Source: Calothrix membranacea FACHB-236 (GTDB lineage: Bacteria > Cyanobacteriota > Cyanobacteriia > Cyanobacteriales > Nostocaceae). From it: a stretch of 64,000 nt of DNA. Below the pieces are notes generated by a model. The model was not told where the DNA came from. It ran no database searches and was given only the letters and a program-made list of their open reading frames with translations. The stretch spans positions 1-64,000 of the forward strand of contig NZ_JACJPX010000041.1 in NCBI RefSeq assembly GCF_014696315.1, given 5' to 3'. Positions 45,101-64,000 of this stretch are shown one piece after another. Position 1 is the stretch's first letter, and each line of letters starts with the position of its first letter. A program made the position numbers and the translations under genes.

Positions 45101-45679
45101 ATGATATTTGATGCAATGAGGTTGATACAGGTTGCTTTGCAACGCTACATCTTGGAGATGGAGCCAGAACTTGGAGCCGGGCCGATTGTGCTTATAGATA
45201 ACATTGCTATGGCTGAAGAACTAGGCGGGCCAAATAATCAATTGAATGGCCATGTAGTCATGAGTTTAGTAAATCTCCAAGAGGAGACTACCCTCAAAAA
45301 TTCTCCTTACTATCGGTTGGAGAACAATCGCACAGTTTACCAAAACCCACCGATTAACCTCAACCTGTTTATTCTCTTTTCTGCACTACACAATAAGTAC
45401 GATACAGCCCTCAGGCTCTTGTCGCGAGTGGTGGAGTTTTTTCAATCGCAAACCGAAATCTCGTTTAATGCTACGCCTGGAACTGGCATTGGTTCAAGGG
45501 ATATCAGGATAGTACCAGACCTTTATTCCCTCTCTTTTGAACAACTTAACCATCTGTGGGGAGCTTTAGGTGGCAAACAGGTGCCTTTCGTTCTCTATCG
45601 GGCCCGTTTAGTAGCCGTAGAAGCGCAAAAACGCCAAGCGGAAAGCGAAGTCATCTCTGGAATCTCTATCAATGAGTGA
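45101..45679 (+). CDS. DUF4255 (Pvc16_N) injection-system tail terminator protein
   Basis: This 192-residue protein is the DUF4255 family member that marks extracellular contractile injection systems. In PVC/Afp particles it caps or terminates the tube and sheath at the distal end. Motifs fit the family: the N-terminal DAMRLIQVALQRYI, NGHVVMSLVNLQEE, LNLFILFSALHNKYDTALRLLSRVVEFFQ, and the C-terminal LNHLWGALGGKQVPFVLYRARLV. It is the first gene of the locus; the next gene starts 9-15 bp after its stop codon. Confidence 0.92.
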   Translation: MIFDAMRLIQVALQRYILEMEPELGAGPIVLIDNIAMAEELGGPNNQLNGHVVMSLVNLQEETTLKNSPYYRLENNRTVYQNPPINLNLFILFSALHNKYDTALRLLSRVVEFFQSQTEISFNATPGTGIGSRDIRIVPDLYSLSFEQLNHLWGALGGKQVPFVLYRARLVAVEAQKRQAESEVISGISINE

Positions 45680-45693
45680 GGGGATAAGTGGCG

Positions 45694-46887
45694 ATGAATT
45701 TATACAAAAGACTCCTCAATTTAGAACTCTGGCATGACTATTATTTAGGTCAACCCGACCCGCCAGAGACACTACCGAGCAATTATGACATCTCTAGTAC
45801 GTTGAGTTTAGTTCCCACGTCGGATTGTCTGCGATCGCTTCGCAATCTGCGTTGGGTTTTTCGTCCCCAGCCTCGCGGTGCAAGCATCTTTGCTCAGGTA
45901 GTGGAGGTGTCGCCTAATGTATTTAAGACGGTGCTGAAAATTGAGCGCCCATTAAGGCTGACATTTTGGTTAGTAGTGCGCGATCGCTATTTTGCCAATT
46001 TCACAAATTTACCTCTGACGACAACTCGCAAGCAGATTTATTATTTCTCCAATACTTCCGGCAATCAAGGACAAGCTTTATTTCTGACGCAACCTTTATC
46101 GGCTTATACTGCCAATAGTGAATATCGTCTAGGGCAATTGGTGAGCCACGCAGGTAAAACCCTGGAAGCCTTGCGTTACCAAGCTGCGGCTAATACTATT
46201 CCTAATGATAGTGATTGGGACACTTTACCTAATAGTCAGTATGTTTCCGAACTAGACCTGCTACCTCGTCAGGGACTATATCGCACATATAACATTACCA
46301 ATGCCAATCCAGGCGATCGCTTTCGCTTGACGTTGGTAGATGTGAATCAACAAGAAACTTACGCCTTGGAAGCCACGATTCCAGATCAGCATACTTCTGG
46401 TAATGACTTTGCCGTTAACTTAAATTTTGCGGGGCAAATTCCTGGACGCTATCGGCTGTTACTCAATGGTTCAGAAGTTGATGATTTTGTACTATTTGAC
46501 CCTTTGGCTGGAAAAGATGCATTTGCCTTAGTTGAAATCGCTGTCAATTCCAATGCCGTATCTACAGCTTTTAGCCTCTTGCAAACCAACACAGGCAATA
46601 CCCTAATTCAACCAAAAACCTACGTCATTCGCTATAAAAATCGGTCAACTCGCTGGCGCTATCGCTACGAGAAACCGCATGGCTTTACTGCCGACAAACT
46701 ACCTGATTTTGAATTAATAGATGTTAAAACTTATGCGACCAAACGACCATTGGGCTTACGTTTACGACCCGATAGTTTGCTTACAGACGGTAAAGATAAT
46801 CCACTACCAGCACCAGGAGTAGCTTTAATCAAACCCGAAATTAAGCAACCATCCGATATGACCATTTATTCTGACATTCATTTGTAG
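45694..46887 (+). CDS. injection-system-associated protein, unrecognised family
   Basis: This protein of about 397 residues lies between the DUF4255 and sheath genes, closely spaced with both (15 and 27 bp). It is soluble and beta-rich, without signal peptide or membrane helix. Visible features are an N-terminal YKRLLNLELWHDYYLGQPDP, FRPQPRGASIFAQV, a LGQLVSHAGKTLEALRY segment and beta-strand-rich stretches such as PGDRFRLTLVDVNQQETYALEATI. The WHDYYLG start is shared, to my recollection, by uncharacterised proteins of similar clusters. A structural or cap role is inferred from position only. GAGGGG precedes either the GTG at 45688 or the ATG at 45694. Confidence 0.7.
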   Translation: MNLYKRLLNLELWHDYYLGQPDPPETLPSNYDISSTLSLVPTSDCLRSLRNLRWVFRPQPRGASIFAQVVEVSPNVFKTVLKIERPLRLTFWLVVRDRYFANFTNLPLTTTRKQIYYFSNTSGNQGQALFLTQPLSAYTANSEYRLGQLVSHAGKTLEALRYQAAANTIPNDSDWDTLPNSQYVSELDLLPRQGLYRTYNITNANPGDRFRLTLVDVNQQETYALEATIPDQHTSGNDFAVNLNFAGQIPGRYRLLLNGSEVDDFVLFDPLAGKDAFALVEIAVNSNAVSTAFSLLQTNTGNTLIQPKTYVIRYKNRSTRWRYRYEKPHGFTADKLPDFELIDVKTYATKRPLGLRLRPDSLLTDGKDNPLPAPGVALIKPEIKQPSDMTIYSDIHL

Positions 46888-46914
46888 AGTACAACTTATT
46901 ACCTAATTAAAACT

Positions 46915-48393
46915 ATGCCAAGCACCTACAAAACTCCAGGGGTTTACATTGAGGAAATCTCGAAGTTACCGCCCTCTATAGCTGAGGTAGCAACTGCGAT
47001 TCCCGCTTTTGTGGGATATACCCAAAAAGCCGTCATCGATGGTCGTGACTTACACGCCGCCTCTGCGATCGAACCAAAACGCATTACTTCGCTGTTAGAG
47101 TACGAACAATACTTTGGTACGACTGAAGCAGAAACCGGAATTACAGTCACCATTGAAGAACAAGTTGATGACCAAACTCCACCCAATGTTATTGATCGCA
47201 AAGTCACCGGTAGCATCAGCAAACCTTCGCCGCACAATATGTACTATGCTCTCCAGGCATTCTTTAAAAATGGTGGCGGGCCTTGCTATATCGTCTCTGT
47301 AGGTAGTGTAAAGACAGCTAGCGGTGTAATTTCAGATACGGCTTTGCAGGCGGGTATTGCTGAAGTAGCTAAAGAAGACGAAGTTACTTTGTTTGTCTTC
47401 CCAGAATCTCAAGCCCTCTATACTACTGCTCTAGACAATAGAGTCGGTGTTTTTGGTGATGCCCTCAATCAATGTGGCTTACTGCAAGACCGATTTGTAA
47501 TTATGGATCTGCAAGTACCCGACTCTGGACAGACCATCGAAGCAGCAGCAGATAAGTTTCGCGAACTGAGTTTATCTTTGGATAACCTCAAGTATGGGGC
47601 TGTGTATGCACCTAATATTGAGACTATTTTCAATTATGTTTATGATCCGAGTTCTGTTAGCATCAACCATCAACAGATAGCCCCTAATGGGACTCAGAGT
47701 GCTGGCCCCTTTAACGCTCAAAAGATGTCTAATTTGGCAACAAGTCAAACAGATGCGACTGTAGGCAATGCCATTTTGTTTAACTTAGTCAAAGCTGCAG
47801 TAGAAGCTATTCCTTTAGTGCTTCCTCCTAGTCCCCTCGTAGCGGGTCAATATGCCACAGTCGATAATACTCGCGGTGTGTTCAAGGCTCCGGCTAATGT
47901 AGCTCTGAGTTCAGTAATTAAGCCGACTATCAAAATTACCAGCGCGCAACAAGAGAATCTCAACGTTCATCCGACTGGCAAATCCATTAATGCGATTCGA
48001 GCTTTTACAGGTAAAGGAACCTTGATATGGGGTGCAAGAACTCTAGCAGGAAATGATAACGAATGGCGTTATGTGCCAGTACGCCGCTTCTTTAACATGG
48101 CTGAAGAATCGATTAAAAAAGCCACTGAAGGATTTGTGTTTGAGCCAAACGATGCCAACACTTGGGTGAAAGTGCAGGCCATGATTGAAAACTTTTTGAT
48201 TCTGCAATGGCGCGCTGGAGCACTAGCTGGAGCTAAACCAGAGCAAGCCTTCTTTGTAAAAGTAGGACTCAATCAAACCATGACCGCACTCGATATTCTA
48301 GAAGGTCGGATGATTATTGAGATTGGTATGGCCGTAGTACGTCCTGCGGAATTCATCATCTTGAAGTTCTCCCACAAGATGCAAGAGAGTTAA
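46915..48393 (+). CDS. contractile tail sheath protein
   Basis: This 492-residue protein is the phage-tail-sheath-like subunit whose contraction drives the inner tube. The N-terminus KTPGVYIEEISKLPPSIAEVATAIPAFVGYT is diagnostic. The C-terminal domain has GTLIWGARTLAGNDNEWRYVPVRRFFNMAEESIKKAT and the terminal part MTALDILEGRMIIEIGMAVVRPAEFIILKFSHKM. No Shine-Dalgarno is evident before the ATG. One sheath gene is visible; many other clusters have two or more. Confidence 0.96.
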   Translation: MPSTYKTPGVYIEEISKLPPSIAEVATAIPAFVGYTQKAVIDGRDLHAASAIEPKRITSLLEYEQYFGTTEAETGITVTIEEQVDDQTPPNVIDRKVTGSISKPSPHNMYYALQAFFKNGGGPCYIVSVGSVKTASGVISDTALQAGIAEVAKEDEVTLFVFPESQALYTTALDNRVGVFGDALNQCGLLQDRFVIMDLQVPDSGQTIEAAADKFRELSLSLDNLKYGAVYAPNIETIFNYVYDPSSVSINHQQIAPNGTQSAGPFNAQKMSNLATSQTDATVGNAILFNLVKAAVEAIPLVLPPSPLVAGQYATVDNTRGVFKAPANVALSSVIKPTIKITSAQQENLNVHPTGKSINAIRAFTGKGTLIWGARTLAGNDNEWRYVPVRRFFNMAEESIKKATEGFVFEPNDANTWVKVQAMIENFLILQWRAGALAGAKPEQAFFVKVGLNQTMTALDILEGRMIIEIGMAVVRPAEFIILKFSHKMQES

Positions 48394-48556
48394 GTAGCTT
48401 GGTGTTAAAAATTATCGCTATGGCAAGGCAGGAGGGAACAGAATTATAGCTTTGTTTACCTTCCTTAACTTAGTTTTGTTTTTTCTCACCAACTTACTTA
48501 ATATCTGCGAGCGCTAATTCCTTAATCATCAAATTAACCCATCAATCTCAACAGTT

Positions 48557-48994
48557 ATGACTGATAATGCTTATCCTTTACCCAAATTTCATTTCCAAGT
48601 AGAGTGGGGTGGCTCTCGCTTAGGATTCACCGAAGTTTCTGGCTTGAACGTAGAAACGGACATGATCGAATACCGCGAAGGTAATATGCCCGAATATCAC
48701 AAACTCAATATGCCAGGAATGCAGAAATTGAGCAAAATCACCATGAAGAGAGGCACCTTCAAGAACGACAACGATTTCTATAATTGGTGGAATACAGTAG
48801 CCCTCAACACCATCGAACGCCGCGATTTAACTATCAGCTTGCTCAATGAAAAGCATGAGCCAGTCGTCGTCTGGAAAGTTAAACACGCCTGGCCTACCAA
48901 AGTTCAATCTAGCGATTTGAAAGGCGATAGTAACGAAGTCGCAATTGAAACTATTGAAATTGCCCACGAGGGTTTAACAATTCAAAATGGATAA
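48557..48994 (+). CDS. inner tube protein 1 (T4 gp19-like)
   Basis: This 145-residue protein is a tail-tube subunit (phage T4-like gp19 / Afp1 type). The family pattern is clear: PLPKFHFQVEWGGSRLGFTEVSGLNVETDMIEYREG, then KITMKRGTF and a C-terminal VWKVKHAWPTKVQSSDLKGDSNEVAIETIEIAHEGL. It probably forms the main hexameric tube under the sheath. It follows the sheath gene after 163 bp. Confidence 0.95.
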   Translation: MTDNAYPLPKFHFQVEWGGSRLGFTEVSGLNVETDMIEYREGNMPEYHKLNMPGMQKLSKITMKRGTFKNDNDFYNWWNTVALNTIERRDLTISLLNEKHEPVVVWKVKHAWPTKVQSSDLKGDSNEVAIETIEIAHEGLTIQNG

Positions 48995-49002
48995 TCTATG
49001 GG

Positions 49003-49036
49003 GTTGACGGTTGACTGTTGACTGTTGACTGTCAAC
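49003..49036. repeat. TGTTGAC heptamer array
   Basis: An STRR array starting GTTGAC and ending GTCAAC, between the two tube genes. Confidence 0.75.
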
Positions 49037-49101
49037 AACCTATGCCGTGAATATCAGCAACAAATCCAAACACCAAAACCTAGATCATGTAGAAGTTTCT
49101 T

Positions 49102-49133
49102 AATTTTGAATTTTGAATTTTGAATTTTGAATT
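49102..49133. repeat. TTTTGAA heptamer array abutting a start codon
   Basis: Four TTTTGAA units end 3 bp before the ATGATG of the second tube gene and take the place of a Shine-Dalgarno sequence. Confidence 0.8.
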
Positions 49134-49136
49134 GTT

Positions 49137-49616
49137 ATGATGTCTGCTTATCCCCCAGTCGGTTTCTTTTTTGATGTGGTTTTCCAGGGTGAAAACTTGG
49201 ATAAAGACGTAGTGGAAACTCGCTTTCAGAGTGTGACTGGTCTGAGTGTAGATATGCAGACTGAAACTCTCAAAGAAGGCGGTGAAAATCGCTTTGAGCA
49301 TATCCTACCAGTGCGTACTAAATATAGTCCCCTGGTACTCAAACGTGGTTTAGTTAAAGATTCAAAGATGGTGAAGTGGTGTATGGATGCTATTCTCAAC
49401 TTTGAAATCCGCCCGATGAATTTGTTGGTAAGGTTGCTACATATAAAGCGTTCTAGTCCTAGCCAACCTGCGGCAGTGATTGAACCCTTGATGACTTGGA
49501 AAGTCATTAATGCTTGGCCTAAAAAGTGGTCAATTTCAGAATTTAACGCCGAGCAAAACTCAATTGCAATTGAATCTTTGGAGTTAAATTATAGCTATTT
49601 TGAAACATTGAGTTAG
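49137..49616 (+). CDS. tube-type protein 2 (Afp5-like tail protein)
   Basis: This 159-residue protein has the same fold pattern as tube proteins but is clearly different from the first: VGFFFDVVFQG…FQSVTGLSVDMQTETLKEGGENRFEHILPVRTKYSPLVLKRGL, then LMTWKVINAWPKKWSISEFNAEQNSIAIESLELNYSYF. In Afp/PVC particles a variant tube protein joins the tube to the baseplate, and this is the likely role here. It may start at the first or second ATG of ATGATG. Confidence 0.92.
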   Translation: MMSAYPPVGFFFDVVFQGENLDKDVVETRFQSVTGLSVDMQTETLKEGGENRFEHILPVRTKYSPLVLKRGLVKDSKMVKWCMDAILNFEIRPMNLLVRLLHIKRSSPSQPAAVIEPLMTWKVINAWPKKWSISEFNAEQNSIAIESLELNYSYFETLS

Positions 49617-49776
49617 GGCATGGGGGATTGGGCAGATCATGGAGTCTTGTCTTTTGCATAAATATTTTTTGTCTCACGCATTCGACAAAGTCGTTCTCGC
49701 AGAGTAGACGCAAAGGGAAAGGCGAAAATCAAGACTTTTATATGAAGTCTAGGTAACAAATTTTGAGGATAAATGG

Positions 49777-49941
49777 ATGCCGATAGAAATTAGAGAACTT
49801 GTGATCAAAACCTCAATCAATGATGGTCAAAACAACAGTTCAGGAGGGACAGGGAGCAGTGATGCTAATGACCAAGATGCCATTATTGCTGCCTGTGTAG
49901 AACAGGTACTAGCCATTCTCAAAGAAAAGTCAGAGCGTTAA
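49777..49941 (+). CDS. small DUF5908-like injection-system protein
   Basis: A 54-residue ORF, not large enough to be caught by usual length cut-offs, begins MPIEIRELVIKTSIND, has a Gly/Ser/Asn linker and ends in a helix, DAIIAACVEQVLAILKEKSE. This is the pattern of DUF5908, a small family found in contractile injection clusters next to tube and LysM genes. Its role is not established. GAGGAT lies 7-10 bp upstream of the ATG. Confidence 0.8.
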   Translation: MPIEIRELVIKTSINDGQNNSSGGTGSSDANDQDAIIAACVEQVLAILKEKSER

Positions 49942-50047
49942 TTCATGACCCAAGGAAACTAGGATACAAGCCCCTAAATTGATTTATGAAGAGTAAAAAA
50001 GTGAAACAAGATTAATTCAAGCCTCCGGATTTATCCTGGTAGTGCTT

Positions 50048-50080
50048 TAATTTTGAATTTTGAATTTTGAATTTTGAATT
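50048..50080. repeat. TTTTGAA heptamer array before the LysM gene
   Basis: Four to five TTTTGAA units reach the GGAG that serves the GTG start at 50095. Confidence 0.8.
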
Positions 50081-50094
50081 CGGAGCAAAGCGAC

Positions 50095-50802
50095 GTGACA
50101 GGTGAACTCACAAAAATTAAAATCCTAGCTTACAAGGACAAGCGATTTGAGAAAAAAGTCGGAGAATTTGACCTACCTATAAATCCGGAGCAGTTTTCTC
50201 AAGCTTTTAAAGTGGAATATGATTTAGCCCAGGCTCAAGGTTCCCAAGGAAACGATCCACAATTTAAATTTACGCGTCCTGAAGAAATGAAGCTGGATTT
50301 TACATTTGATGGTACAAATGTTGTGCCAATCAAAGGTAAACCTAACCAGTTTCATCAAAATGTAGCGCAACAAGTCCAGGATTTTCTAAATGTGGTTTAC
50401 ACAATGGATGGTAGAACCCACAAACCTAATTTTCTGCGCTTGTTGTGGGGTAACTTTTCTTTTGGGAATAAAAACGGCTTTGATTGTATTCTCAAAGATT
50501 TACAAATTAACTATACGCTGTTTTCCCCAGATGGACAGCCATTGCGGGCTAGGCTTGGTGCTAATTTTGTTAACTACATCGAGCAAGAACGCCGGGTAAG
50601 AGAAGAAGGGAAAAAATCACCTGATGTTACCCATCAACGCAAAGTCACTGCTGGCGATACCTTACCTTTAATGACCTATGACATTTACGGCGATCCAACT
50701 TATTATCTCCAAATTGCCAAAGTCAACGGTCTGATTAATTTTCGTCGGTTAGCGACTAATACTGATTTGAGATTTCCACCCCTTGAGAAAACCGAATCAT
50801 GA
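50095..50802 (+). CDS. LysM-domain tube-baseplate adaptor (Afp7/gp53-like)
   Basis: This 235-residue protein has an N-terminal CIS-tube domain (LTKIKILAYKD, then FDLPINPEQFSQAFKVEYD and KPNFLRLLWGNFSFGNKNGFDCILKDLQINYTLFSPDGQPLRARL). A C-terminal LysM-like domain reads VTAGDTLPLMTYDIYGDPTYYLQIAKVNGLINFRRL. It should sit between the tube end and the baseplate hub. I chose the GTG at 50095, with GGAG 10 bp upstream, over a TTG that lies in the heptamer array. Its stop codon overlaps the start of the next gene (ATGA), so translation is coupled. Confidence 0.92.
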   Translation: MTGELTKIKILAYKDKRFEKKVGEFDLPINPEQFSQAFKVEYDLAQAQGSQGNDPQFKFTRPEEMKLDFTFDGTNVVPIKGKPNQFHQNVAQQVQDFLNVVYTMDGRTHKPNFLRLLWGNFSFGNKNGFDCILKDLQINYTLFSPDGQPLRARLGANFVNYIEQERRVREEGKKSPDVTHQRKVTAGDTLPLMTYDIYGDPTYYLQIAKVNGLINFRRLATNTDLRFPPLEKTES

Positions 50803-52571
50803 GCGATCTGATTATCCCTAATAATGCGCTTTATAACGTTGCTAGTTACGAGTTGCTTGCCAATGGTAAGGACATCACAAACACTTATGCGGTGTTGTCC
50901 ATAACAATTAACTCGGTGGTGAATCGAGTCCCAACAGCGCGGCTAGTGCTGCGAGATGGTGATGTTGCGGAGGAAACTTTTGCTAGCAGTGAAGGGCCTG
51001 ACCTAGTTCCGGGTAACAAACTGGAAATTTCTCTGGGTTACGATGGCATCAATCGTTCCGTATTCAAAGGATTGATTGTCAAACAAGCCCTGAAAGTAGG
51101 TGCAAATGGTAGCTCAATCCTCATCCTTGATTGTAAAGCTGCTGCTACTAGATTGACCGTTGGTCGCCATAGTCGCTATTTCAGGGACATTAAAGATAGT
51201 GATGCGATCGCACAAATTCTCGGTAACTACAGTATAGGAGGAGTAGAAATTACCGACAGCAAATTTCAGCATCCACAAATCGTCCAATACTACGCTACTG
51301 ATTGGGACTTTATTTTGTCTCGCGCTGAAATGAACGGACAAATTGTTGTGGTGGAAAAAGATAAGTTCAAGGTGAAACCGCCAAACACTAGTGGTAGTCC
51401 AATCATTACCCTCACCTATGGCACCAACATACTGGAGTTTGAAACCGAAATGGACGCGCGATCGCAATATCCAGAGGTAAAGGCGCAAGCTTGGAGTTAT
51501 GGCGATCAGGCGTTACTTGAGGTGCAGGGGATTGAGCCTATTGTCAATAAACAGGGTAACCTCTCAGGCAAAGATTTAGGTAATGCGATCGCTTTGGAAG
51601 CATTCCAACTAAGTCATAGTGGTCACTTACAAACCCAAGAACTCCAAGCATGGGCAGATGCTCAATTGCTCAAAAGCCGATTAGCGAAAATTCAGGGGCG
51701 GGTGAAAACCAAAGGCTACCCTGATGCTCAAATTGATGCCCTGATTGAGTTAAAAGGGATTGGTAGGCGTTTTAACGGAATAGCCTATGTGTCTGGTATT
51801 CGTCACGAAGTTATCGGTGGAGCCTGGTTTACTCATATACAGCTTGGTATGAGTTCTCAGTGGTTTTACCAAGAAGCTGACATCGTGGATAAACCAGCAT
51901 CAGGAATGCTCCCTGGTGTTAACGGCTTACAAATTGGTGTGGTAGTGCAGTTACAGGATGATCCTAATGGTGAAGACAGGATTTTAGTCAAAGTGCCTAC
52001 CCTCGATTCTAAGTCTCAGGGAATTTGGACTCGCATCGCCACTTTGGATGCTGGTAACAATCGCGGTTCGTTTTTTCGCCCGGAAATTGGTGACGAAGTA
52101 GTATTAGGCTTTCTCAACGATGATCCACGCGATGCGATTGTATTAGGAATGCTCAACAGCAAGGCTAAACCAGCGCCTCTAAAAGCTTCCGATAACAATC
52201 ACCAGAAAGGATTTTTTACGCGATCGCAAATTAAAGTGACCTTCGACGATGAAAAGAAATTCATCACCCTGGAAACTCCAGGTGGTAACAAAATTACCAT
52301 TTCTGATGAGGATAAAGGGATTGCGTTGAAAGACCAAAACGATAATACGCTGATTATGAACGGTAGCGGTATCGTCATGAAAAGCCCCAAAGATATCACC
52401 ATCGAAGCCACTGGTAATTTAACACTCAAAGCTATCAAAGATAACAACATTGAGGGATTAAACGTCAATGTTAAAGCCAATGCTCAGTTTAAAGCTCAGG
52501 GTAATGGTGGTGCGGAAGTTTCTACAAGTGCGATCGCAGTTCTCAAGGGTTCTTTAGTTCAGATTAATTAA
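50799..52571 (+). CDS. VgrG/gp5-like spike protein
   Basis: This 590-residue protein is the central spike. Residues about 15-340 are a phage late control D/gp27-like hub (VPTARLVLRDGDVAEETFASS, then GNKLEISLGYDG). Residues about 371-452 form an OB-fold gp5-like domain (GLQIGVVVQLQDDPNGEDRILVKVP, GIWTRIATLDAGNNRGSFFRPEIGDEVVLGFLNDDPRDAIVLGML). The C-terminus is a beta-prism needle of short repeats (KFITLETPGGNKITISDE…). There is no extra effector domain. The ATGA overlap with the LysM gene and the PAAR gene downstream fit a spike complex. Confidence 0.96.
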   Translation: MSDLIIPNNALYNVASYELLANGKDITNTYAVLSITINSVVNRVPTARLVLRDGDVAEETFASSEGPDLVPGNKLEISLGYDGINRSVFKGLIVKQALKVGANGSSILILDCKAAATRLTVGRHSRYFRDIKDSDAIAQILGNYSIGGVEITDSKFQHPQIVQYYATDWDFILSRAEMNGQIVVVEKDKFKVKPPNTSGSPIITLTYGTNILEFETEMDARSQYPEVKAQAWSYGDQALLEVQGIEPIVNKQGNLSGKDLGNAIALEAFQLSHSGHLQTQELQAWADAQLLKSRLAKIQGRVKTKGYPDAQIDALIELKGIGRRFNGIAYVSGIRHEVIGGAWFTHIQLGMSSQWFYQEADIVDKPASGMLPGVNGLQIGVVVQLQDDPNGEDRILVKVPTLDSKSQGIWTRIATLDAGNNRGSFFRPEIGDEVVLGFLNDDPRDAIVLGMLNSKAKPAPLKASDNNHQKGFFTRSQIKVTFDDEKKFITLETPGGNKITISDEDKGIALKDQNDNTLIMNGSGIVMKSPKDITIEATGNLTLKAIKDNNIEGLNVNVKANAQFKAQGNGGAEVSTSAIAVLKGSLVQIN

Positions 52572-52660: not shown

Positions 52661-52963
52661 ATGGGAAAACCAGCGGCGCGAATTAATGATATGCACGTTT
52701 GTCCAATGCAGACTCCAGCAGTACCCCCGATTCCTCATGTTGGTGGCCCTGTAATTGGCCCTGGACAACCGAATGTCTTAATCGGCGGATTACCTGCTGC
52801 TGTATTGGGTGATAGCTGTGTCTGCACTGGGCCACCAGACGCTATTGTTATGGGTTCAGCAACTGTGTTTATTGGGGGAAAACCTGCGGCGCGCTTGGGT
52901 GATACAACAGCGCATGGCGGCTCGATTGTTTTGGGAGATTTCACTGTATTAATCGGAGGTTGA
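52661..52963 (+). CDS. PAAR-domain spike tip
   Basis: This 100-residue protein is a PAAR-type cone that sharpens the spike. It shows repeated GGxPAA(V/R)LGD motifs (LIGGLPAAVLGDSC and FIGGKPAARLGDTTAHGG) and histidines/cysteines suited to bind the tip metal (MHVCPMQTP, CVC). AAGGAAAG lies before the ATG. The gp25-like gene begins 1 bp after its stop codon. Confidence 0.96.
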   Translation: MGKPAARINDMHVCPMQTPAVPPIPHVGGPVIGPGQPNVLIGGLPAAVLGDSCVCTGPPDAIVMGSATVFIGGKPAARLGDTTAHGGSIVLGDFTVLIGG

Positions 52964-52964
52964 G

Positions 52965-53390
52965 ATGGATGAAAACGATAATGCTTTTCTAGGGACAGGT
53001 TGGGGATTTCCGCCGCAATTTAATAAAATGTCTCGCAGTGTCAGGCTGGTTAGCGCTGAGGAAGATATTAACGAAAGTCTCAAAATTCTCCTGACAACTA
53101 GCTTGGGTGAACGGGTGATGCAACCTACCTATGGCTGTAACTTAGAAAATTTGCTGTTTGAGCCTCTGAGTCCAACTGTAGCTAGCAGTATTAAAGAACT
53201 TGTAAGGATTGCCATTGTTTATCATGAGCCTCGTATCCGCTTGGAACGCTTGGATCTCAACCTTGATGAACAGTTGAAAGGAGTCATCAATATCACAGTG
53301 GATTACACCGTGATTACTACTAATTCTCGCTTTAATTTCGTTTATCCTTTCTATTTGCAAGAAGGTGTTGGTTCGTTAGCAATTACTTAA
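52965..53390 (+). CDS. gp25-like baseplate wedge protein
   Basis: This 141-residue protein matches the GPW/gp25 family of baseplate components. The key stretch is EEDINESLKILLTTSLGERVMQPTYGCNLENLLFEPLSPTVASSIKELVRIAIVYHEPRI, with the conserved G-E-R in the first helix-turn and P-x-Y-G-x-x-L. It initiates sheath polymerisation at the baseplate. It starts with an ATG next to the PAAR stop codon, with GGAGG upstream inside the PAAR gene. Confidence 0.95.
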   Translation: MDENDNAFLGTGWGFPPQFNKMSRSVRLVSAEEDINESLKILLTTSLGERVMQPTYGCNLENLLFEPLSPTVASSIKELVRIAIVYHEPRIRLERLDLNLDEQLKGVINITVDYTVITTNSRFNFVYPFYLQEGVGSLAIT

Positions 53391-56800: not shown

Positions 56801-57546
56801 CCGATTTTTATATTCGCATTAGCGAACATCTGCGTCATAAAGGCCGGGCTGTTACCATCTTTGACTATGAAAGGCTTGTACTAGAAAAGTTTCCCGAAAT
56901 TTACAAAGTTCGCTGTATCAACCACGGACAAGTTGATCAACAAAACGACAAGTTGCAGGAATTGACACCTGGATCGGTGACTTTAGCTGTCATTCCCAAC
57001 TTAGCATTGATGGGAATTACTAATGAATTAGAACCCAAAGTTAACATTAACCTGCTACAGCAAATCGAGAAATATTTGGCTAGTATCAGTTCTCCTTGGG
57101 CTGCAATACAAGTAGTAAATCCTGCATACGAACATATTCAGGTGGAATTTCAGGTGAAATTTAAATCTCCCTATTCTGCCAACTTTGGATACTATAGCCG
57201 CCAATTAGAACAAGCAATCACTTATTTTCTTGCCCCTTGGACAATGGATAGGCAAGCGGAAATTCAGTTTGGCGGTAAACTCTACCGTTCGGCAATTGTC
57301 AACTTTATCGAAAAGCAGGAATACATTGACTATGTTGTGGATTTTAAAATGCACCAAGACACCCAACGAGATATCCGAGAAGCGATCGCTTCTACTGCGC
57401 GATCGGTTCTAACTTCAGTTTCGTTAAATACTAGCGATCAAGGTCACATTATTCAAGAATTTCAAGAAAAAACAGTTGTGCCTAATCAAAAAATTGAGTC
57501 TGGTATTTTAGGTTATGAATCTTTAGAAGATTTGGAATTGTTGTAA
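53854..57546 (+). CDS. large baseplate J-like protein (Afp11-like)
   Basis: This 1230-residue protein is the main baseplate wedge component of the locus. It has a long helical N-terminal half (about 1-320, with LAPLYLAFLEVMKPARDDLNLMTQRHLDFFYRQVL-like sequence) and beta-rich middle regions. A C-terminal baseplate-J-type domain (about 980-1190: DFYIRISEHLRHKGRAVTIFDYERLVLEKFPEIYKVRCINHG, then SITLAVIPN-like strands and YRSAIVNFIEKQEYIDYV) fits gp6/gpJ. The length fits eCIS members, which are much longer than phage gpJ. It follows the MITE insertion and 463-bp gap, so it may need a promoter of its own or read-through. Confidence 0.9.
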   Translation: MKIRPEKLKNPLIRDGVSQRQRQVPALSPDFVKVDENELGDFLVFAYRLSEQIIYYNDKNDAEGNWQAFFNGNTPIQIALISKTRPQKIKDQYSQHLREFLSELSSESGQSNQKFEKFADLLATWIEILQQIYKWYTSLESYTPLQAVIRGLVKTNLREPILRIWAFEQAYVAASKKVFNSADIYTKFNKEFGLNLTPPAADRTPFNANPVQVRDELDAVFQILFQNYYQIIQQAPQYLEKSLQARQDHQPYLALYLAFLEVMKPARDDLNLMTQRHLDFFYRQVLRLRDRPAQPDHAHLIFELIKSQTEFALPAATRFKAGKDATGKDLFYSLDADIVIHKAQITSLKGLFLDLQAVKPGEKPPRNPGLYSSSVANSFDGQGGDFPKEQTIKTWLPFGNDKRQPTQLGLAIASDVLLLQESERVIQFTFSLSGLGTVLPADKLHEVFEVYLSGEKDWIKADILKSGAPVAGGGKEKTGWNNSELSLVVVLAAEIDPVLPYLPDKPIPYNPDIPNFPLTLPQATPVARIELKTQVLVDNLPAYHYFRNVKLDKVSISVRVKEVRNLVVQNDLGVLDATKPFQPFGPRPAVGSKFYVGSQEIFLKNLSDLQINITWEKLPASLKDYYRGYYVDGENPQPDFENFSAQLARLTKRTWSEAGLSNPYELFLSGDRTLVNASTTPLQGEEIDNFTSLNNQTSGGFLRFSLNQDFLHEEFATKYATQTLAAAKDFADEKYVNEAVYELKDKSLQRWRPGVIFTKGEVAPITLNQPYTPTIQSLYLKYTAVATTQDCTIFHLYPFGGFEHLEAEKPDFLPQFTNEGELLIGLENLDPPTALPLLFQVAEASADTALKKADVNWFYLKDNTWESLSDRIVSDNTNGLIASGIIHVGIPADISKAKTTILDPNLHWLKVTVPARSGAICQIFGVHTQAARVSFTDESNDPNHLANPLAAGTIAKQVNPNPEVKTIEQLYDSFGGKIKEQPADFYIRISEHLRHKGRAVTIFDYERLVLEKFPEIYKVRCINHGQVDQQNDKLQELTPGSVTLAVIPNLALMGITNELEPKVNINLLQQIEKYLASISSPWAAIQVVNPAYEHIQVEFQVKFKSPYSANFGYYSRQLEQAITYFLAPWTMDRQAEIQFGGKLYRSAIVNFIEKQEYIDYVVDFKMHQDTQRDIREAIASTARSVLTSVSLNTSDQGHIIQEFQEKTVVPNQKIESGILGYESLEDLELL

Positions 57547-57934: not shown

Positions 57935-58423
57935 ATGTTTACCGTATCGAACGATGCCAATGTCTTAAGAAGCCGCAACGAACTTAAGAGTTTATTCAAA
58001 AATAAAAGTCGCCTTTCAGAAGACCATTTTAAAGACTTGATCAACTCCATGCTCAACAAACATGATGATCAATTTCATGGATTGTGGCAGGAGGGAAAAA
58101 CCTATCGCAAAGGCGATGTCGTCTATTATCAAGGCGCACTTTGGGAAATGCAAGCAGAAACAGAAATTTGCGCCCATGAAGATGAAGCACCAGGCAAAGG
58201 TAAGCAATGGAAATCACTGGTCAAAGAATTAGAAAAAAAAGTCAATCAGCTGCAACATGATTTAACAGAACTGAGTAAAGCATTTGCCGAATATCAAGAG
58301 CAAATGAAAATTCGTTTACACCAATTTCTCAGGTATATTACATTGCTCACCTTGGGATTAGCAATTACCTTTGTTTGGTTATTTATTGGGTCTACCCATC
58401 ATATTGTTACAGGGACGAATTGA
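57935..58423 (+). CDS. carbohydrate-binding-like, coiled-coil, C-terminally membrane-anchored protein
   Basis: This 162-residue protein has an N-terminal helical part (about 1-45) and then the segment GLWQEGKTYRKGDVVYYQGALWEMQAE (about 50-76), which follows the W-x-x-x-x-x-Y-x-x-G-D-x-V-x-Y-x-G-x-x-W pattern of CBM5/12-like chitin-binding modules. Next come a coiled coil (about 90-125) and one strong membrane helix (about 132-152) with a short polar end. There is no signal peptide, so it looks like a tail-anchored protein facing the cytoplasm. In an injection system that docks to a membrane, this is a good candidate for the anchor or for a baseplate extension (inference). Confidence 0.75.
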   Translation: MFTVSNDANVLRSRNELKSLFKNKSRLSEDHFKDLINSMLNKHDDQFHGLWQEGKTYRKGDVVYYQGALWEMQAETEICAHEDEAPGKGKQWKSLVKELEKKVNQLQHDLTELSKAFAEYQEQMKIRLHQFLRYITLLTLGLAITFVWLFIGSTHHIVTGTN

Positions 58424-58593: not shown

Positions 58594-61500
58594 ATGCTGG
58601 AATACCCAAGCATATCGAAAAGTCAGCCCCAATTTCCCGCATATTTGAATTTTCAAACCTTACGGGATATCGGGATTCAACACTTACAAAGTTTGTCCGG
58701 TAAACTTTGGACAGATTATAATCTGCACGATCCAGGTGTAACTATCCTAGAGGTACTATGCTATGCCGTTACAGATTTAGGCTATCGCAATAACTTGGAT
58801 ATCCAAGATTTGTTGGCAAAGGCAAATCCTCAGAGTAAAGAGAACAACTTTTTTACGGTTGATGAAATACTCACCTGTAATCCAGTCACAGAACTAGATT
58901 TATGTAAGCGTCTAATTGATATTCCTGGCGTGCGTAATGCCATGCTAGAGAAAGTCACAAGCTATGAACCAGATATCTATGTAGACTTTACTAACAGTAC
59001 TCTGCAATACACTCCTCCAGGCGCACAGACAAAAGACAAAGCTTTTCGTCTGCATCCCCGTGGGCTTTACACTGTTAATATTGACCTCGAACCTGAATAT
59101 AGTAAGAACGCCTGTGGACAACTTTATCGTTCCTGGGCGGATGTGCTAGATAATGTCAACAGCGTTTTATGTAAATATCGCAACCTCTGCGAAGATATTT
59201 ATGATGTGGTGATTTTGAGTGAGGAAGAAATTGCTCTCTGTACAGATATTGAATTGGCGGCGAATGCAGATGCCGAGGATGTACTAGTAGATATTTACGT
59301 ACAAGTACAGTCATTTCTCTCGCCACATTTACGATTTTATACTCTACAAGAATTACTAGATAAAGGCAAAAGTCCCACCGAAATCTTTGCCGGCAGACCT
59401 TCAGTCCTCCACGATCCAACTTACACCAAACCTTACGATAGTCATGGTTTTATCGATACCGATGAATTAGCAGCCCTGACTCCGCCGAAAATTCTCCATA
59501 CTTCAGATTTATATCAAGAAATTCTCAAAGTTCCTGGTGTAGCGGCAATTGGTAAACTGAGTATCATAAGCTACATTAACGGTTTACCGCAATCACAGCA
59601 CCCTTGGTATTTGCAACTCACCGAGAAACACCGTCCGGTGCTGGGGGTGAAATATTCCAAAGTCAGGTTATTCAAAGGTAACCTTCCCATTGAAGTGAAT
59701 ATGGCAGAGGTGCAACGCCGCTACTACGAACAACAAGCGGCACGTATCAAAGCTGTGCGCGACAAAAGTGAACTAGATTTGATTGTACCGCAAGGCAGTT
59801 ATTATGACTTAGCTGATCATTATTCCATCCAGCATGATTTTCCTTTAACCTACGGTATTAGTGAGGATGGCTTACCTGACACAGCTACCACGCTACGGAA
59901 AGCCCAAGCTCGGCAATTAAAAGGATATCTGGTATTTTTCGATCAGATATTGGCAAATTATTTAGTGCAGCTTTCTCATATACGCGACCTCTTTTCTTGG
60001 GAAATAGATGCAGAGGAAGAACAAAAAGGCTATGCTAACCGCACACCAGAGCAGCAGTATACTTATTTCACTCAGAGGTTGCAAAATTTTCCAGGGTGGG
60101 AAGAGATTCTCGGTACGGAAAATTATCTACGTTACATTGGTGAGGATGTAGATAATCCCACGCGTGAAACCTATCGCGATCGCCGTAACCGTTTTCTCGA
60201 TCATTTACTAGGCCGTTTTGCTGAATCCTTTACAGATTATGTGTTGCTGAACTACCGCATATTCGAGACTCACGCGGATAAAGTTAAGCATCAAACCGAG
60301 ATTATGCAGGATAAGGCGCGATTTTTACAAGACTATCCGACCTTAAGCCGCGATCGCTTCCGTGCTTTTAATTATTGCAACTGTCAGGAAGTTTGGGACA
60401 CCAACAATGTATCGGGTTTTAAAAAGCGGGTTTCTCGGCTGTTAGGAATTGCAGATGTGCGTCGGCGTGATTTCAGTCATTATCGCGTCAAGCAAGCGCC
60501 TAAAAGTTATATCTTGGCTGTAAATTATGGTTTAGAAAATCATTCATTAAAAACTCGGAAAAGCTATCCTAGTCAAGCCGCAGCTGAAGCGGCTAAGGAA
60601 GAGTTTTTATCATTTGCTTTACATAATCAATTTTATCAACGCCTTGCTTATAGTTATTTCTATCACTACGGCTGGCAAGTAGTAGATAAAACAGGTAAAA
60701 ACGTTTTAGTTAAATACGATCGCTATTTTCCCTCAGCAGCTGAAAGTCAAACTAATTTGAACATTCTCCTAGGAGAATTAGCTGTACGGCTAGCTGGATT
60801 ACCACTGGAAACTCCTGCAAATACCCAAAGCGCCAACTCGTTTGCAGATTTCATCAGCATCGAATTCGACGGCGAATTATATTACTTTCGCTTAAGTATT
60901 CCACCCATCGCCTCTACACCCGGGGAAACTATTACATTTACTGGGGTGGAACGCTATGTTTCTCGTTCCATAGCCCAAGAAAACGCGATCGCCAGCTTAC
61001 AGCAAATTAGACAGCAACGAAATTACTGTCAAAGTCGCTTGGGTGATGATAATCCCAAAAAATTCACCTACTACAGCTATGCTTTGGTGGATAACACCGG
61101 GAAAGTATTATCGGAACGCAATCAACGGTGGTTGACACCAGAAGAACGAGATTTAGATTTACAAAGCTGGTTCAGTAGCATTCAAGCTAATCAAAATCAA
61201 TTTAAATTGGCAGTAGAACCAGTTGGCAAGAACTATCGTTTTGTACTGCAAAATCTTACTGACAATCAAATTCTGCTGCAAAGTTTAAACACTTATCCCA
61301 CAGCAAATGCAGCTTGGCAAGCTACAGAAGCCTTTGCCGAAAGTCTGCGCTATTTCCGACGTTATGTCAGCCCAGCTAGTCAAAGCTACAGATTAGGGAT
61401 TAAAGATAAAGATGGCAACCTGATAGCTGTAGCCGATACACAACAGACTTCAGGGGAAATCTTTCAACAACTCAACTCCGTAGACTCGATATTGCGAATT

Positions 61501-62643
61501 GAACTACTACCGGAATCGACTTCTGAGTATCGGTGGCAATTGCTACATGGGGGTGAAATATTACTGCAAAGCATTCCCGTATTTGCAGATGAAAAAACAG
61601 CCCGCGATCGCTTTTATTATGATGTGCTAGGTAACCTGTTTGAGCCAGGTGCAATATCCCTCACCACCAGCAAAGAAGGTTTCAGCTTTCGCATCCTGAG
61701 TCAACCAGGCAATCGCAAAACTGAAGTTGCAATTCACCCACATACCTATACCTCAGAACCAGAGCAGGATGCAGCGATTAATCGTCTATTTTTCTTAATC
61801 CGCATTGCCCGTTTAATTTGTATCCCAGAAGAACAACCAGCTGGTTGTACTGGGGTAATTTACGGTGATAATCAGCAAATTATTTTACAGACGGCTCAAC
61901 GTTATAAGACAAAGGCAGATGCTTGGGAACAAGGCAACACTTTAGTAGAACTGGCGCAAGATGAGGAGAATTATCGCTTAATTGACAGTGAGAATGGTGT
62001 TTATGGCTGGGAATTAACCAACGAAGGCAAAGACCAAATTCTTGCTAGTCAATATTACAGCAATAAAGATGAGCGAACGAGAGCGATCGCAATCTTGCAA
62101 GCACGCAACAATGATGAAGGATTCCATGTATTAGAGCATATTTTGTTGCGTCCCCGAACCAAAGCAAATGCTCCAGTTTTAGACGAATTTTTGCAAATTT
62201 TGGTGACTCCAGATGATGCTAAAACACAGGAGGGAGAACAACCTCGTTTAACTTGGCAAGATCCCTACTCGTTTTGGGTGACTATAGTTTTACCTTACTG
62301 GCCACAACGCTTTCGTAATATTAACTTCCGCCGATTTATTGAACAAACCCTGCGGCTAGAAGCACCGGCACACGTCACCCTAAAAATTGCCTGGTTAGAT
62401 GTGCAGCAAATGCGACATTTTGAAGATTTTTATCATCAATGGTTAGAACAATTAGCTTTAGATGCTTGCGATGATGCCGCTTGCGATTTAACTGGCGCAC
62501 TTAATCAACTGGTGGAAATTTTACCCAAACTACGGAGTGTTTATCCCAAGGGAATTTTGCTGGATTCCCAAGAAAGCGGTAATCAAGAGAATCCGATTGT
62601 ACTAAATCAGACTGCATTGGGGATAGCAATTGATAATTCGTAA
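58594..62643 (+). CDS. giant injection-system baseplate/fibre-associated protein
   Basis: This 1349-residue protein starts with a baseplate-type segment, LSGKLWTDYNLHDPGVTILEVLCYAVTDLGYRNNLDIQDLL (about 35-75), as in Afp12-like or related eCIS proteins. A central region (about 636-1180) repeats small units of the form YxxxLxDxxGxxLLxS…Y.t…A…A (for example FVLQNLTDNQILLQSLNTYPTANAAWQA and WQLLHGGEILLQSIPVFADEKTARD), resembling YegP/DUF1508 modules. The end has GFHVLEHILLRPRTKANAPVLDEF and DPYSFWVTIVLPYWPQRFRNINFRRFIEQTLRLEAPAHV, which I recognise from uncharacterised eCIS clusters. The exact role is unknown. Confidence 0.82.
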   Translation: MLEYPSISKSQPQFPAYLNFQTLRDIGIQHLQSLSGKLWTDYNLHDPGVTILEVLCYAVTDLGYRNNLDIQDLLAKANPQSKENNFFTVDEILTCNPVTELDLCKRLIDIPGVRNAMLEKVTSYEPDIYVDFTNSTLQYTPPGAQTKDKAFRLHPRGLYTVNIDLEPEYSKNACGQLYRSWADVLDNVNSVLCKYRNLCEDIYDVVILSEEEIALCTDIELAANADAEDVLVDIYVQVQSFLSPHLRFYTLQELLDKGKSPTEIFAGRPSVLHDPTYTKPYDSHGFIDTDELAALTPPKILHTSDLYQEILKVPGVAAIGKLSIISYINGLPQSQHPWYLQLTEKHRPVLGVKYSKVRLFKGNLPIEVNMAEVQRRYYEQQAARIKAVRDKSELDLIVPQGSYYDLADHYSIQHDFPLTYGISEDGLPDTATTLRKAQARQLKGYLVFFDQILANYLVQLSHIRDLFSWEIDAEEEQKGYANRTPEQQYTYFTQRLQNFPGWEEILGTENYLRYIGEDVDNPTRETYRDRRNRFLDHLLGRFAESFTDYVLLNYRIFETHADKVKHQTEIMQDKARFLQDYPTLSRDRFRAFNYCNCQEVWDTNNVSGFKKRVSRLLGIADVRRRDFSHYRVKQAPKSYILAVNYGLENHSLKTRKSYPSQAAAEAAKEEFLSFALHNQFYQRLAYSYFYHYGWQVVDKTGKNVLVKYDRYFPSAAESQTNLNILLGELAVRLAGLPLETPANTQSANSFADFISIEFDGELYYFRLSIPPIASTPGETITFTGVERYVSRSIAQENAIASLQQIRQQRNYCQSRLGDDNPKKFTYYSYALVDNTGKVLSERNQRWLTPEERDLDLQSWFSSIQANQNQFKLAVEPVGKNYRFVLQNLTDNQILLQSLNTYPTANAAWQATEAFAESLRYFRRYVSPASQSYRLGIKDKDGNLIAVADTQQTSGEIFQQLNSVDSILRIELLPESTSEYRWQLLHGGEILLQSIPVFADEKTARDRFYYDVLGNLFEPGAISLTTSKEGFSFRILSQPGNRKTEVAIHPHTYTSEPEQDAAINRLFFLIRIARLICIPEEQPAGCTGVIYGDNQQIILQTAQRYKTKADAWEQGNTLVELAQDEENYRLIDSENGVYGWELTNEGKDQILASQYYSNKDERTRAIAILQARNNDEGFHVLEHILLRPRTKANAPVLDEFLQILVTPDDAKTQEGEQPRLTWQDPYSFWVTIVLPYWPQRFRNINFRRFIEQTLRLEAPAHVTLKIAWLDVQQMRHFEDFYHQWLEQLALDACDDAACDLTGALNQLVEILPKLRSVYPKGILLDSQESGNQENPIVLNQTALGIAIDNS

Positions 62644-62706
62644 TTCGTAATTCGTAATTGCAAGAGATTATTAACAAATGACAAATGACAAATAACAAAT
62701 AACAAC
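62634..62706. repeat. TAATTCG and AAATGACA/AAATAACA heptamer arrays
   Basis: Two STRR arrays fill the gap between the 1349-residue gene and the next ATG at 62716. Confidence 0.75.
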
Positions 62707-62715
62707 GACTTACTT

Positions 62716-64000
62716 ATGAACACAATTATTAAAAACATTAGCTACCCCATCTTTACGGCTAACCAGGTGTTAACTAAAGATGATTTGAATCTAGTTGTTA
62801 ATTATCTTGATGGGCAGAATCGGCTCACCCGTGCCTATTTGATTGGTACAGGGATTGTTTGGGGCATGGATTTGAGCAGTACATTTGATACTACAAAGGC
62901 TCAGATTCAAATCTCCGCAGGATGTGGCATTACTTCAGAAGGGTATCTGATTTCTGTGCCAGCAACAATACTCACTCATTATAAAAATGACCAACTAGTT
63001 TCTGAGTCTTTATTTGCACCAACTCCCCAAGAGGATCAAGAAGTAACTACTACGCAAATTAAATCTGTTCCAGTCATAGAACTCTTTCAGCAAAGTGCTG
63101 ATAATCTTTTAGCACTCAATCAAGATGATAATGGGACTCCGCGCAATGAAGCAGCTTTCGAGACTTTTTTGAGCAAATACGTACTAGTTGTAGTGTATGA
63201 AATTCAAGACGTAGAAACTGACTACTGTTTACTTGATTTTGATAGATTAAGCAATCAGCGTAATTTTAATCTCCGCTTTTTTCTCCTCCCTCATTCTTTA
63301 AAAGAAAATCCGCCAGATATTATTAGTGCTGATAGCTTAGTGCGAACAGGATATCAGTTCGATAAGTTGCCAGAACCTTGGGCAAATATCGCTAAAAACG
63401 GCACTTCTAAAGTTTTTGAAACTACCAGTCACTTTCTCCAAGAATTTGACTCAGAAATTCAGGCATTTAAAGATTATGCACCCAAAGTTCAGCGCTTTGG
63501 TTATGTGGCAGCAGAACAAAAGGTAGACTTAAGTAAAATTAACAGCTACGCTGGCTTTTGGCAGAACTACTACCTAGTTTGCAAGAATGCGATCGCAGCA
63601 ATTGAAAAAGCATTCCCGAAACTGTTTCAGTTGTTCTCGCCGTTTTTCTCTTCCTTTCAACCTCCTTCTCAAAACGACTTTGGGCAGATTGGACAAAGCT
63701 TGCAAAAACTGCTGAATAGCATCCAAAATCCCACAGTTTCAGCTACCACAGTTGAGGTTCCGGAAGCTCCTTTTACACTGCAATATTTTTATGATTACCT
63801 CAGTCAACTAGTAGCTGCTTATGATGAATTAGCTGAGGCTGCCTTTGATTTAATGGATGACTGTACGCCTGATACTCAAAGGTTTCCTAAGTTTTTACTC
63901 TTAGGGATAATTCCCCCACCCGATCAAGCCGATCCAGTAATTGCACCACTTTCCCCTTATCGTAGCCATTTCACCCAGCCTCCCATCAACAACGCCGAGC
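62716..64000 (+). CDS. injection-system protein, large, incomplete at window end
   Basis: The frame is open from the ATG at 62716 to the end of the window (over 428 codons, no stop seen). It starts MNTIIKNISYPIFTANQVLTKDDLNLVVNYLDGQNRLTRAYLIGTGIVWGMDL. I recall the FTxNQVLT…YLD.Q.RLTR..LIG.GI pattern from uncharacterised large proteins of eCIS and T6SS-like clusters. Later regions look helical with coiled-coil potential. There is no signal peptide. Its function is unknown; a fibre, baseplate or tape-measure-related role can only be decided with the complete gene. Confidence 0.7.
   Translation, partial: MNTIIKNISYPIFTANQVLTKDDLNLVVNYLDGQNRLTRAYLIGTGIVWGMDLSSTFDTTKAQIQISAGCGITSEGYLISVPATILTHYKNDQLVSESLFAPTPQEDQEVTTTQIKSVPVIELFQQSADNLLALNQDDNGTPRNEAAFETFLSKYVLVVVYEIQDVETDYCLLDFDRLSNQRNFNLRFFLLPHSLKENPPDIISADSLVRTGYQFDKLPEPWANIAKNGTSKVFETTSHFLQEFDSEIQAFKDYAPKVQRFGYVAAEQKVDLSKINSYAGFWQNYYLVCKNAIAAIEKAFPKLFQLFSPFFSSFQPPSQNDFGQIGQSLQKLLNSIQNPTVSATTVEVPEAPFTLQYFYDYLSQLVAAYDELAEAAFDLMDDCTPDTQRFPKFLLLGIIPPPDQADPVIAPLSPYRSHFTQPPINNAE

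What the first reader, a model, noticed from the sequence alone, without database searches (positions are those of the whole stretch)
45101..64000. A cyanobacterial contractile injection system locus, possibly of the thylakoid-anchored class
DUF4255, sheath, two tube-type proteins, DUF5908, LysM, VgrG-like spike, PAAR, gp25-like and baseplate-J-like genes are all present on one strand. Together they define an eCIS, not a phage: no capsid, terminase or portal genes are in the window. Such systems in multicellular cyanobacteria were reported to dock on thylakoid membranes. The AAA+ ATPase, tape measure and cargo are not in view and should lie beyond 64 kb.
Basis: partly seen in the sequence, partly recalled or inferred. 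Interest (0 to 1): 0.85.

Follow-up and report, generated by a model that had tools for sequence, protein, structure and literature searches.

The report
Thylakoid-anchored injection machine in Nostoc
This stretch of a filamentous cyanobacterium's genome encodes a complete phage-tail-like syringe of the kind that sits in photosynthetic membranes, followed by its cargo genes, which look like exchangeable toxins carrying a shared N-terminal tag and sometimes paired with a protective gene.

Summary
Contig C101 (78,860 bp; window = bases 1-64000) carries an intact 15-gene thylakoid-type contractile injection system (tCIS), cis16A to cis14, at 45101-70754. Six of its proteins were searched against the PDB; all six hit the Anabaena PCC 7120 tCIS chain first. 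The three published tCIS marks (Cis13 transmembrane helix, Cis12 extension, Cis19 crown) are present. Tape measure and cargo lie beyond 64 kb, as predicted; the expected AAA+ ATPase was not found. The locus is a new member of a known kind. Beyond the published description: (1) tCIS cargo shares an N-terminal three-FF tag, found in 13 of 15 Cis13-bearing and 0 of 202 other family genomes. (2) The main cargo keeps residues 1-1006 and swaps its C-terminus between species, in a minority of loci with a tightly coupled next gene; one relative has a barnase-like tail plus barstar. (3) Anabaena Cis19 and 6 of 16 loci examined end in a tail-anchor-like helix; this Nostoc lacks it and has seven 97-aa crown repeats. 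Targets and localisation in this strain are untested.

The parts
45101..45679 (+). cis16A, cap protein, Pvc16_N (DUF4255), 192 aa
   Evidence: Pfam PF14065 E 4.3e-39
45688..46887 (+). cis16B, second cap protein, 399 aa
   Evidence: PDB best hit All3326 (7b5i) E 1.2e-164
46915..48393 (+). cis2, contractile sheath, 492 aa
   Evidence: PDB best hit All3325 E 6.1e-203
48557..48994 (+). cis1, inner tube, 145 aa
   Evidence: Phage_T4_gp19 E 3e-49
49137..49616 (+). cis5, first tube layer, 159 aa
   Evidence: Phage_T4_gp19 E 3.8e-39
49777..49941 (+). cis6, spike plug, DUF5908, 54 aa
   Evidence: PF19265 E 4e-22
50074..50802 (+). cis7, CIS_tube protein (true start may be a GTG a few codons in)
   Evidence: PF19266 E 2.1e-50
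50799..52571 (+). cis8, VgrG-like spike, 590 aa
   Evidence: PF04717 E 1.4e-19; 74% and 73% identical in G091 and G174
52661..52963 (+). cis10, PAAR tip, 100 aa
   Evidence: PF05488 E 3.4e-28
52965..53390 (+). cis9, gp25-like baseplate, 141 aa
   Evidence: PF04965 E 2.6e-24
53854..57546 (+). cis11, baseplate J-like wedge, 1230 aa
   Evidence: PDB best hit All3317, residues 8-1229 aligned
57935..58423 (+). cis13, tail-fibre-like membrane anchor, 162 aa, C-terminal transmembrane helix
   Evidence: All3316 E 2.5e-59 aligned through the helix; helix at a matching place in 17 of 17 loci
58594..62643 (+). cis12, baseplate wedge with the thylakoid-contacting extension, 1349 aa
   Evidence: All3315, one domain 1-1347 against 1-1335
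62716..64000 (+). cis19, crown protein, 1968 aa; continues past the window to contig base 68622
   Evidence: All3314, 1490 bits; seven 97-aa repeats at residues 1031-1709

Best explanation
A complete, maintained tCIS locus of a Nostoc close to N. linckia and N. carneum. Shown by sequence: 15 structural genes in the Anabaena order (6 of 6 ranks checked), with a sheath-tube-spike machine, a two-protein cap, a Cis13 stalk ending in a membrane helix, the Cis12 extension and a Cis19 crown; no AAA+ ATPase found in or beside the cluster; DUF4157 cargo immediately downstream. Inferred: particles assemble in the cytoplasm, Cis13 and Cis12 seat them in a thylakoid pore as in Anabaena, cargo enters the tube through its N-terminal FF tag, and on stress or lysis the sheath fires the tube. 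The main cargo (C101:71704-75165) behaves as a polymorphic toxin: a conserved N-terminus and long chassis carry an exchangeable C-terminal toxin domain. The HEAT/pentapeptide gene that starts at the base after its stop is its likely immunity gene.
For: Best PDB hits are the Anabaena tCIS chains for 6 of 6 of this locus's proteins searched. The Cis13 helix is in 17 of 17 loci (Kyte-Doolittle 1.95-2.34; 16 of 17 exceed 1.97, the 99th percentile of shuffles) and Cis13 aligns through it to All3316. The same cluster is in N. carneum, N. linckia, Calothrix and others. dN/dS against N. carneum is 0.07-0.26 for cis11, 13, 12, 19 and 14. Cargo: at the search threshold eCIS_core occurs twice in this 8.8-Mb genome, both beside the tCIS. 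The FF tag is in 13 of 15 Cis13-positive and 0 of 202 Cis13-negative family genomes (Fisher 4e-19), and all 19 matches lie within about 17 kb of cis13. C-terminal swap: N. linckia is 91% identical over residues 1-1007 and unalignable after; Calothrix NIES-3974 matches 1-1006; G401 matches 1-1013. The C-terminal domain (E up to 1e-3) and the HEAT gene (E up to 1e-30) occur in the same 2 of 217 genomes.
Against: No experiment on this organism; localisation and targets are inferred. Weiss et al. saw no clear effect of Anabaena tCIS on predators or other target cells tested, though mutant ghost cells tended to keep their cytoplasmic membrane. The AlphaFold model of the toxin domain is poor (pLDDT 54) and no Pfam or NCBIfam family matches it, so 'toxin' rests on architecture and neighbours. 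Only 5 of 15 loci have a tightly coupled gene after the effector (14 loci, N. carneum). The chassis is not specific to tCIS: it occurs in 45 of 217 family genomes. The two genomes sharing the domain and the HEAT gene are close relatives, so co-occurrence may be one event. Fisher's test ignores relatedness.
Confidence: 0.85

Rival explanations
1. An ordinary extracellular CIS: particles float in the cytoplasm, are released on lysis and bind targets by tail fibres.
For: Same general gene set as eCIS, including DUF4157 cargo. [quoted passage not shown]
Against: The tail-fibre slot is filled by a 162-aa Cis13 ending in a membrane helix, and the Cis12 extension is present. In Anabaena, deleting that helix left 9 of 14 particles free-floating, never seen in wild type (PMC8894136).
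Confidence: 0.08
2. A prophage or phage tail remnant.
For: The same genome holds a separate contig, C128, with a sheath gene and a terminase-like gene.
Against: No capsid, portal or terminase family among the proteins scanned in C101:45101-78860; frames intact and under purifying selection; the C128 sheath is only 30% identical over 182 residues.
Confidence: 0.01
3. The cargo C-termini vary because the tail is unconstrained, and the HEAT gene is an unrelated insertion, so there is no toxin-immunity system.
For: The C-terminal domain and HEAT gene were found only in two close relatives; 10 of 15 loci lack a coupled next gene; the model is uninformative.
Against: Break point near residue 1006 in three comparisons. 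In G399 the tail matches barnase-type ribonuclease (PF00545 E 0.0017, below cut-off; 46 of 47 weak PDB hits, E 0.024 to 1, are barnase or guanyl RNases, many of them variants of one protein) and the next gene is barstar over cut-off, E 4e-15. G463 cargo carries YkuD over cut-off. G401 tail is EndoU-like (E 9e-4, below cut-off; no EndoU among PDB hits). dN/dS of the C-terminal domain is 0.26.
Confidence: 0.25

Closest known systems
Anabaena sp. PCC 7120 thylakoidCIS (all3327-all3313; PDB 7b5h, 7b5i; PMC8894136)
   Same: Fifteen structural genes, the same rank for 6 of 6 genes checked; two-protein cap, Cis13 membrane helix, Cis12 extension, Cis19 crown; two DUF4157 cargo genes beside the cluster; the paper's main text does not mention an ATPase.
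   Different: Cargo is collinear after cis14 here (the Anabaena names alr3312/alr3311 suggest the other strand; naming convention recalled); Cis19 is 1968 aa against 1476, with seven 97-aa repeats, and lacks the C-terminal helix that All3314 has.
AlgoCIS of Algoriphagus machipongonensis
   Same: Its sheath, Cis11 and Cis12 homologues are the next-best PDB hits; a distant Cis19-like PKD protein exists (9wt0).
   Different: Described as extracellular (PMC8894135, search listing only); the best-matching stretch of its Cis12 covers residues 17-632 of this one, with a second stretch not shown.
DUF4157-type toxins associated with eCIS (Geller et al. 2021, PMC8213781, passages read)
   Same: N-terminal DUF4157, very long linker, C-terminal toxin domain; some neighbouring immunity genes.
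   Different: The words barnase, barstar and EndoU do not occur in its main text, and the passages seen describe no FF tag.

Membership tests
thylakoidCIS (tCIS) | Contractile sheath, tube, spike, baseplate and cap genes of the CIS type | tested here: met
thylakoidCIS (tCIS) | Cis13 with C-terminal transmembrane helix | tested here: met
   aligned to All3316 through the helix; mean hydropathy 2.08 over 19 residues
thylakoidCIS (tCIS) | Cis12 extension (Anabaena residues 610-1100) | tested here: met
   single alignment 1-1347 to 1-1335 of All3315; the best stretch of each other CIS chain listed ends by residue 632 (some have further stretches not shown)
thylakoidCIS (tCIS) | Cis19 crown protein | tested here: met
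   All3314 1381 bits over residues 6-1328 plus 114 bits over 1805-1953
thylakoidCIS (tCIS) | Particles anchored in thylakoid membrane pores | not testable with these tools
   needs cryo-tomography
thylakoidCIS (tCIS) | C-terminal membrane helix of Cis19, as in All3314 (not a mark used in the paper, so not defining) | tested here: not met
   best window 0.84 here; helix in All3314 and 6 of 16 loci
Prophage | Capsid, portal or terminase genes alongside | tested here: not met
   none among the proteins scanned in C101:45101-78860
eCIS of AFP/PVC type | AAA+ ATPase (Afp15/Pvc15) in the cluster | tested here: not met
   the rest of the genome was not searched for one
Polymorphic toxin with immunity | Conserved N-terminus with exchangeable C-terminal domain | tested here: met
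Polymorphic toxin with immunity | Cognate immunity gene directly downstream | tested here: inconclusive
   HEAT gene adjacent and co-occurring in 2 of 2; barstar in G399; no coupled gene in 10 of 15 loci
Polymorphic toxin with immunity | Toxic activity and rescue | not testable with these tools
   needs expression in laboratory E. coli

The most novel reading that the evidence does not exclude
tCISs are a tagged, toxin-swapping system with two tail-anchored membrane tethers. A three-FF ladder loads cargo without a Pvc15-type ATPase in the cluster; C-termini are exchanged like bacterial weapons, some with partner immunity genes; and in Anabaena-type systems the crown itself carries a membrane helix that may tie the particle's outer face to a second membrane, explaining its outward orientation. 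The Nostoc clade here lacks that tether and has longer, free crown arms.
Probability: 0.3. Interest if true: 0.75.

Novelty: new member of a known kind. Interest (0 to 1): 0.52.

Why it matters
What tCISs inject, and at whom, is open: the published Anabaena assays found no clear target. Swapped toxin tails, with a barnase-like/barstar pair and a YkuD peptidoglycan-type domain in relatives, suggest that some cargo acts on bacteria or on the producer itself, which can be tested directly in E. coli. The FF tag gives a simple handle for finding cargo and testing loading in a system in whose cluster no loading ATPase was found. A Cis19 membrane helix, not described in the main text of the Anabaena paper, offers a concrete candidate cause for outward orientation.

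Tried and rejected
Structure prediction of the cargo C-terminal domain (pLDDT 54) and of the 363-aa gene beside it (pLDDT 36) was too poor to use, so no fold search was run. The 363-aa gene looked YbjN-like to me from memory, but neither Pfam nor NCBIfam supports it; kept only as a lead. Neither the cargo domain nor the HEAT gene matched the plasmid collection. The Cis19 tree was set aside for history because Cis19 is mosaic; '4 changes' of the helix is only a rough count. EndoU in G401 stays tentative. The phylum-wide Cis13 search gave 4 of 386, own genome included; the weakest (G357, 33% over 52 residues of coiled coil) was dropped as chance-like. Cis19 of L024 is cut by the contig end and left out of helix and repeat counts. 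From three ORFs (G400 2001 aa, G413 363 aa, G091 515 aa) were left out of the FF count as not cargo, judged by eye; N. carneum cargo and the first N. linckia cargo were not among the 20 counted. The length of G413 cis14 (254 aa) is cut by the contig end.
Full report
What is there. The window is bases 1-64000 of contig C101 (78,860 bp) in an 8.81-Mb genome of 164 contigs. From 45101 on, one strand carries cis16A, 16B, 2, 1, 5, 6, 7, 8, 10, 9, 11, 13, 12 and 19, then, past the window in the same numbering, the rest of cis19 (to 68622), the tape measure cis14 (68691-70754, CIS_TMP E 9.9e-128), cargo 1 (70803-71588, 261 aa), cargo 2 (71704-75165, 1153 aa), a HEAT/pentapeptide gene (75166-76302), a 363-aa gene (76349-77440), an 84-aa ORF (77528-77782) and a 187-aa kinase-like gene (78191-78754).

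Class. Six proteins of this locus were searched against the PDB and all six had the Anabaena tCIS chain first: Cis13/All3316, Cis12/All3315, Cis19/All3314, Cis16B/All3326, Cis11/All3317, Cis2/All3325. Their ranks in the row equal their ranks in all3327-all3313, the 15-gene cluster of Weiss et al. 2022 (PMC8894136; abstract, the whole Results and discussion section and passages read; supplements not read). That paper reports three features often conserved together: the Cis13 transmembrane domain, the Cis12 extension and the Cis19 crown. All three are met here. The rest of this genome was not searched for a Pvc15-type ATPase.

Distribution. Cis13 of this type is in 15 of 217 genomes of the family and 7 of 8 of the genus, and in 4 of 386 genomes drawn across the phylum, own genome included and one of them a weak coiled-coil match. 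A scan of named genomes with a Cis19 alignment gave eight loci: N. carneum, N. linckia, four Calothrix or Mastigocoleus records, a Leptolyngbyaceae MAG and a Pseudanabaenaceae record. Cis13 keeps its helix in 17 of 17, 16 of them above the 99th percentile of shuffles.

Maintenance. Against N. carneum, dN/dS is 0.10 (cis11), 0.07 (cis13), 0.16 (cis12), 0.26 (cis19), 0.18 (cis14), 0.13 (cargo 2), 0.23 (HEAT gene), 0.18 (363-aa gene) and 0.52 for the 84-aa ORF. The 84-aa ORF matches the N-terminus of a 267-aa eCIS_core protein in G397, so it is probably a remnant.

Cargo tag. Of 20 cargo ORFs examined from 14 tCIS loci, 17 have three or more FF pairs in the first 85 residues, 15 of them at the exact spacing 9 and 11; three have two pairs; shuffles reach three pairs in 0-2.2% of trials. 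Two tagged proteins (G386 603 aa, G460 375 aa) have no HExxH, so the tag does not simply follow DUF4157. A protein search with one tag finds it in 13 of 217 genomes, all among the 15 with Cis13 (missed: G397 and G460, whose spacing differs), and in 0 of 202 without; all 19 matches lie within about 17 kb of cis13 (Fisher 4e-19, ignoring relatedness). As a small control, four chassis-bearing proteins from genomes without Cis13 whose starts lie in held loci have no FF pair in their first 110 residues; five of five from tCIS loci have the three. PVC loads effectors through N-terminal signals with the ATPase Pvc15 (PMC11495950, search listing with start of abstract only). That the FF tag loads cargo is inference.

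Cargo swapping. Cargo 2 shares residues 1-1007 at 91% with N. linckia, then nothing; Calothrix NIES-3974 matches 1-1006 at 49%; G401 matches 1-1013 at 89%; N. carneum matches all 1153 at 96%. The C-terminal domain occurs in 2 of 217 family genomes and the HEAT gene in the same two, with no match in the plasmid collection. Other loci: G401 EndoU-like tail with a 153-aa gene starting 6 bases on; G397 with a 192-aa gene 7 bases on; G399 barnase-like tail with barstar (PF01337 E 4e-15) 10 bases on; G463 eCIS_core plus YkuD. Against this reading: in 10 of 15 loci no tightly coupled gene follows (14 loci, N. carneum); the barnase and EndoU matches are below cut-off; the chassis is found in 45 of 217 family genomes, so it is not tCIS-specific; and immunity to a universal toxin does not show who the target is. 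Geller et al. 2021 (PMC8213781, passages) call the lack of immunity genes beside most eCIS toxins a mystery, so these pairs are useful test cases. A paper search for eCIS, barstar and immunity together found 0 papers in the held library. Passages of PMC11297309 and PMC12210884 were also seen and describe no such pair for tCIS.

Crown. Cis19 here has seven 97-aa repeats, 51-66% identical, at residues 1031-1709. Against Anabaena, residues 1329-1804 face only 17 residues of All3314. Ten other loci have an 87- or 89-aa period and one a 94/102-aa period, in varying number. Variable Ig/PKD copy number in this family is already in print (PMC12923769, passages). The end of All3314 (1433-1466) aligns, weakly on its own (9.9 bits), with a hydrophobic helix ending in GWTY that also closes Cis19 in 6 of 16 loci, 18-20 residues from the end; 10 of 16, including this one, lack it, and no GWTY-like motif follows their stop within 330 bases. 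The All3314 window scores 1.69; 1-6% of shuffled tails of four loci reach 1.6, so hydropathy alone is modest, and the conserved place and motif carry the argument. The passages on Cis19 and on transmembrane domains shown from PMC8894136 describe no membrane helix in Cis19, and its methods list only Cis12 and Cis13 as analysed for membrane helices; 'transmembrane' does not occur in the main text of PMC12923769. A second tether is my inference.

Mosaic crown gene. G463 and G174 share 98% of Cis13 and 93% of Cis12, yet 27-76% of Cis19 per 60-column window over the first ~440 residues, where G463 resembles G091 at 68-96%; beyond that G463 and G174 are mostly 79-100% identical, with one dip to 52%. 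This looks like exchange of a crown segment between lineages.

Noticed in passing
G000:C128 (L004, L005): A separate 45.5-kb contig carries a terminase-like gene (PF03237) and a contractile sheath (30% identical to cis2 over 182 residues) among phage-like genes: a probable contractile-tailed phage or prophage in the same genome.
   Followed up: partly
Cis19 genes in L087, L016 and L013: The first ~440 residues of Cis19 appear exchanged between Calothrix-like lineages, against the relationships shown by Cis12 and Cis13.
   Followed up: partly
window:49100-49140 and 50040-50080: Short tandem heptamers (ATTTTGA type) sit in two gaps between tube genes.
   Followed up: no
contig C101:76349-77440: A 363-aa gene of unknown family follows the cargo here and in N. 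carneum, N. linckia and Calothrix NIES-3974 (a divergent copy in G397, split in G401, partial in G463); possibly a cargo helper.
   Followed up: partly
cis14 of the tCIS loci, such as G386, G399, G460: Tape-measure ORFs range from 681 to 1181 aa (first-start ORFs, one cut by a contig end left out), so particle length may differ between species.
   Followed up: no
L087:14019-15065: Two fragments of the cargo 2 chassis in uncultured Calothrix look like a decayed second cargo gene.
   Followed up: no
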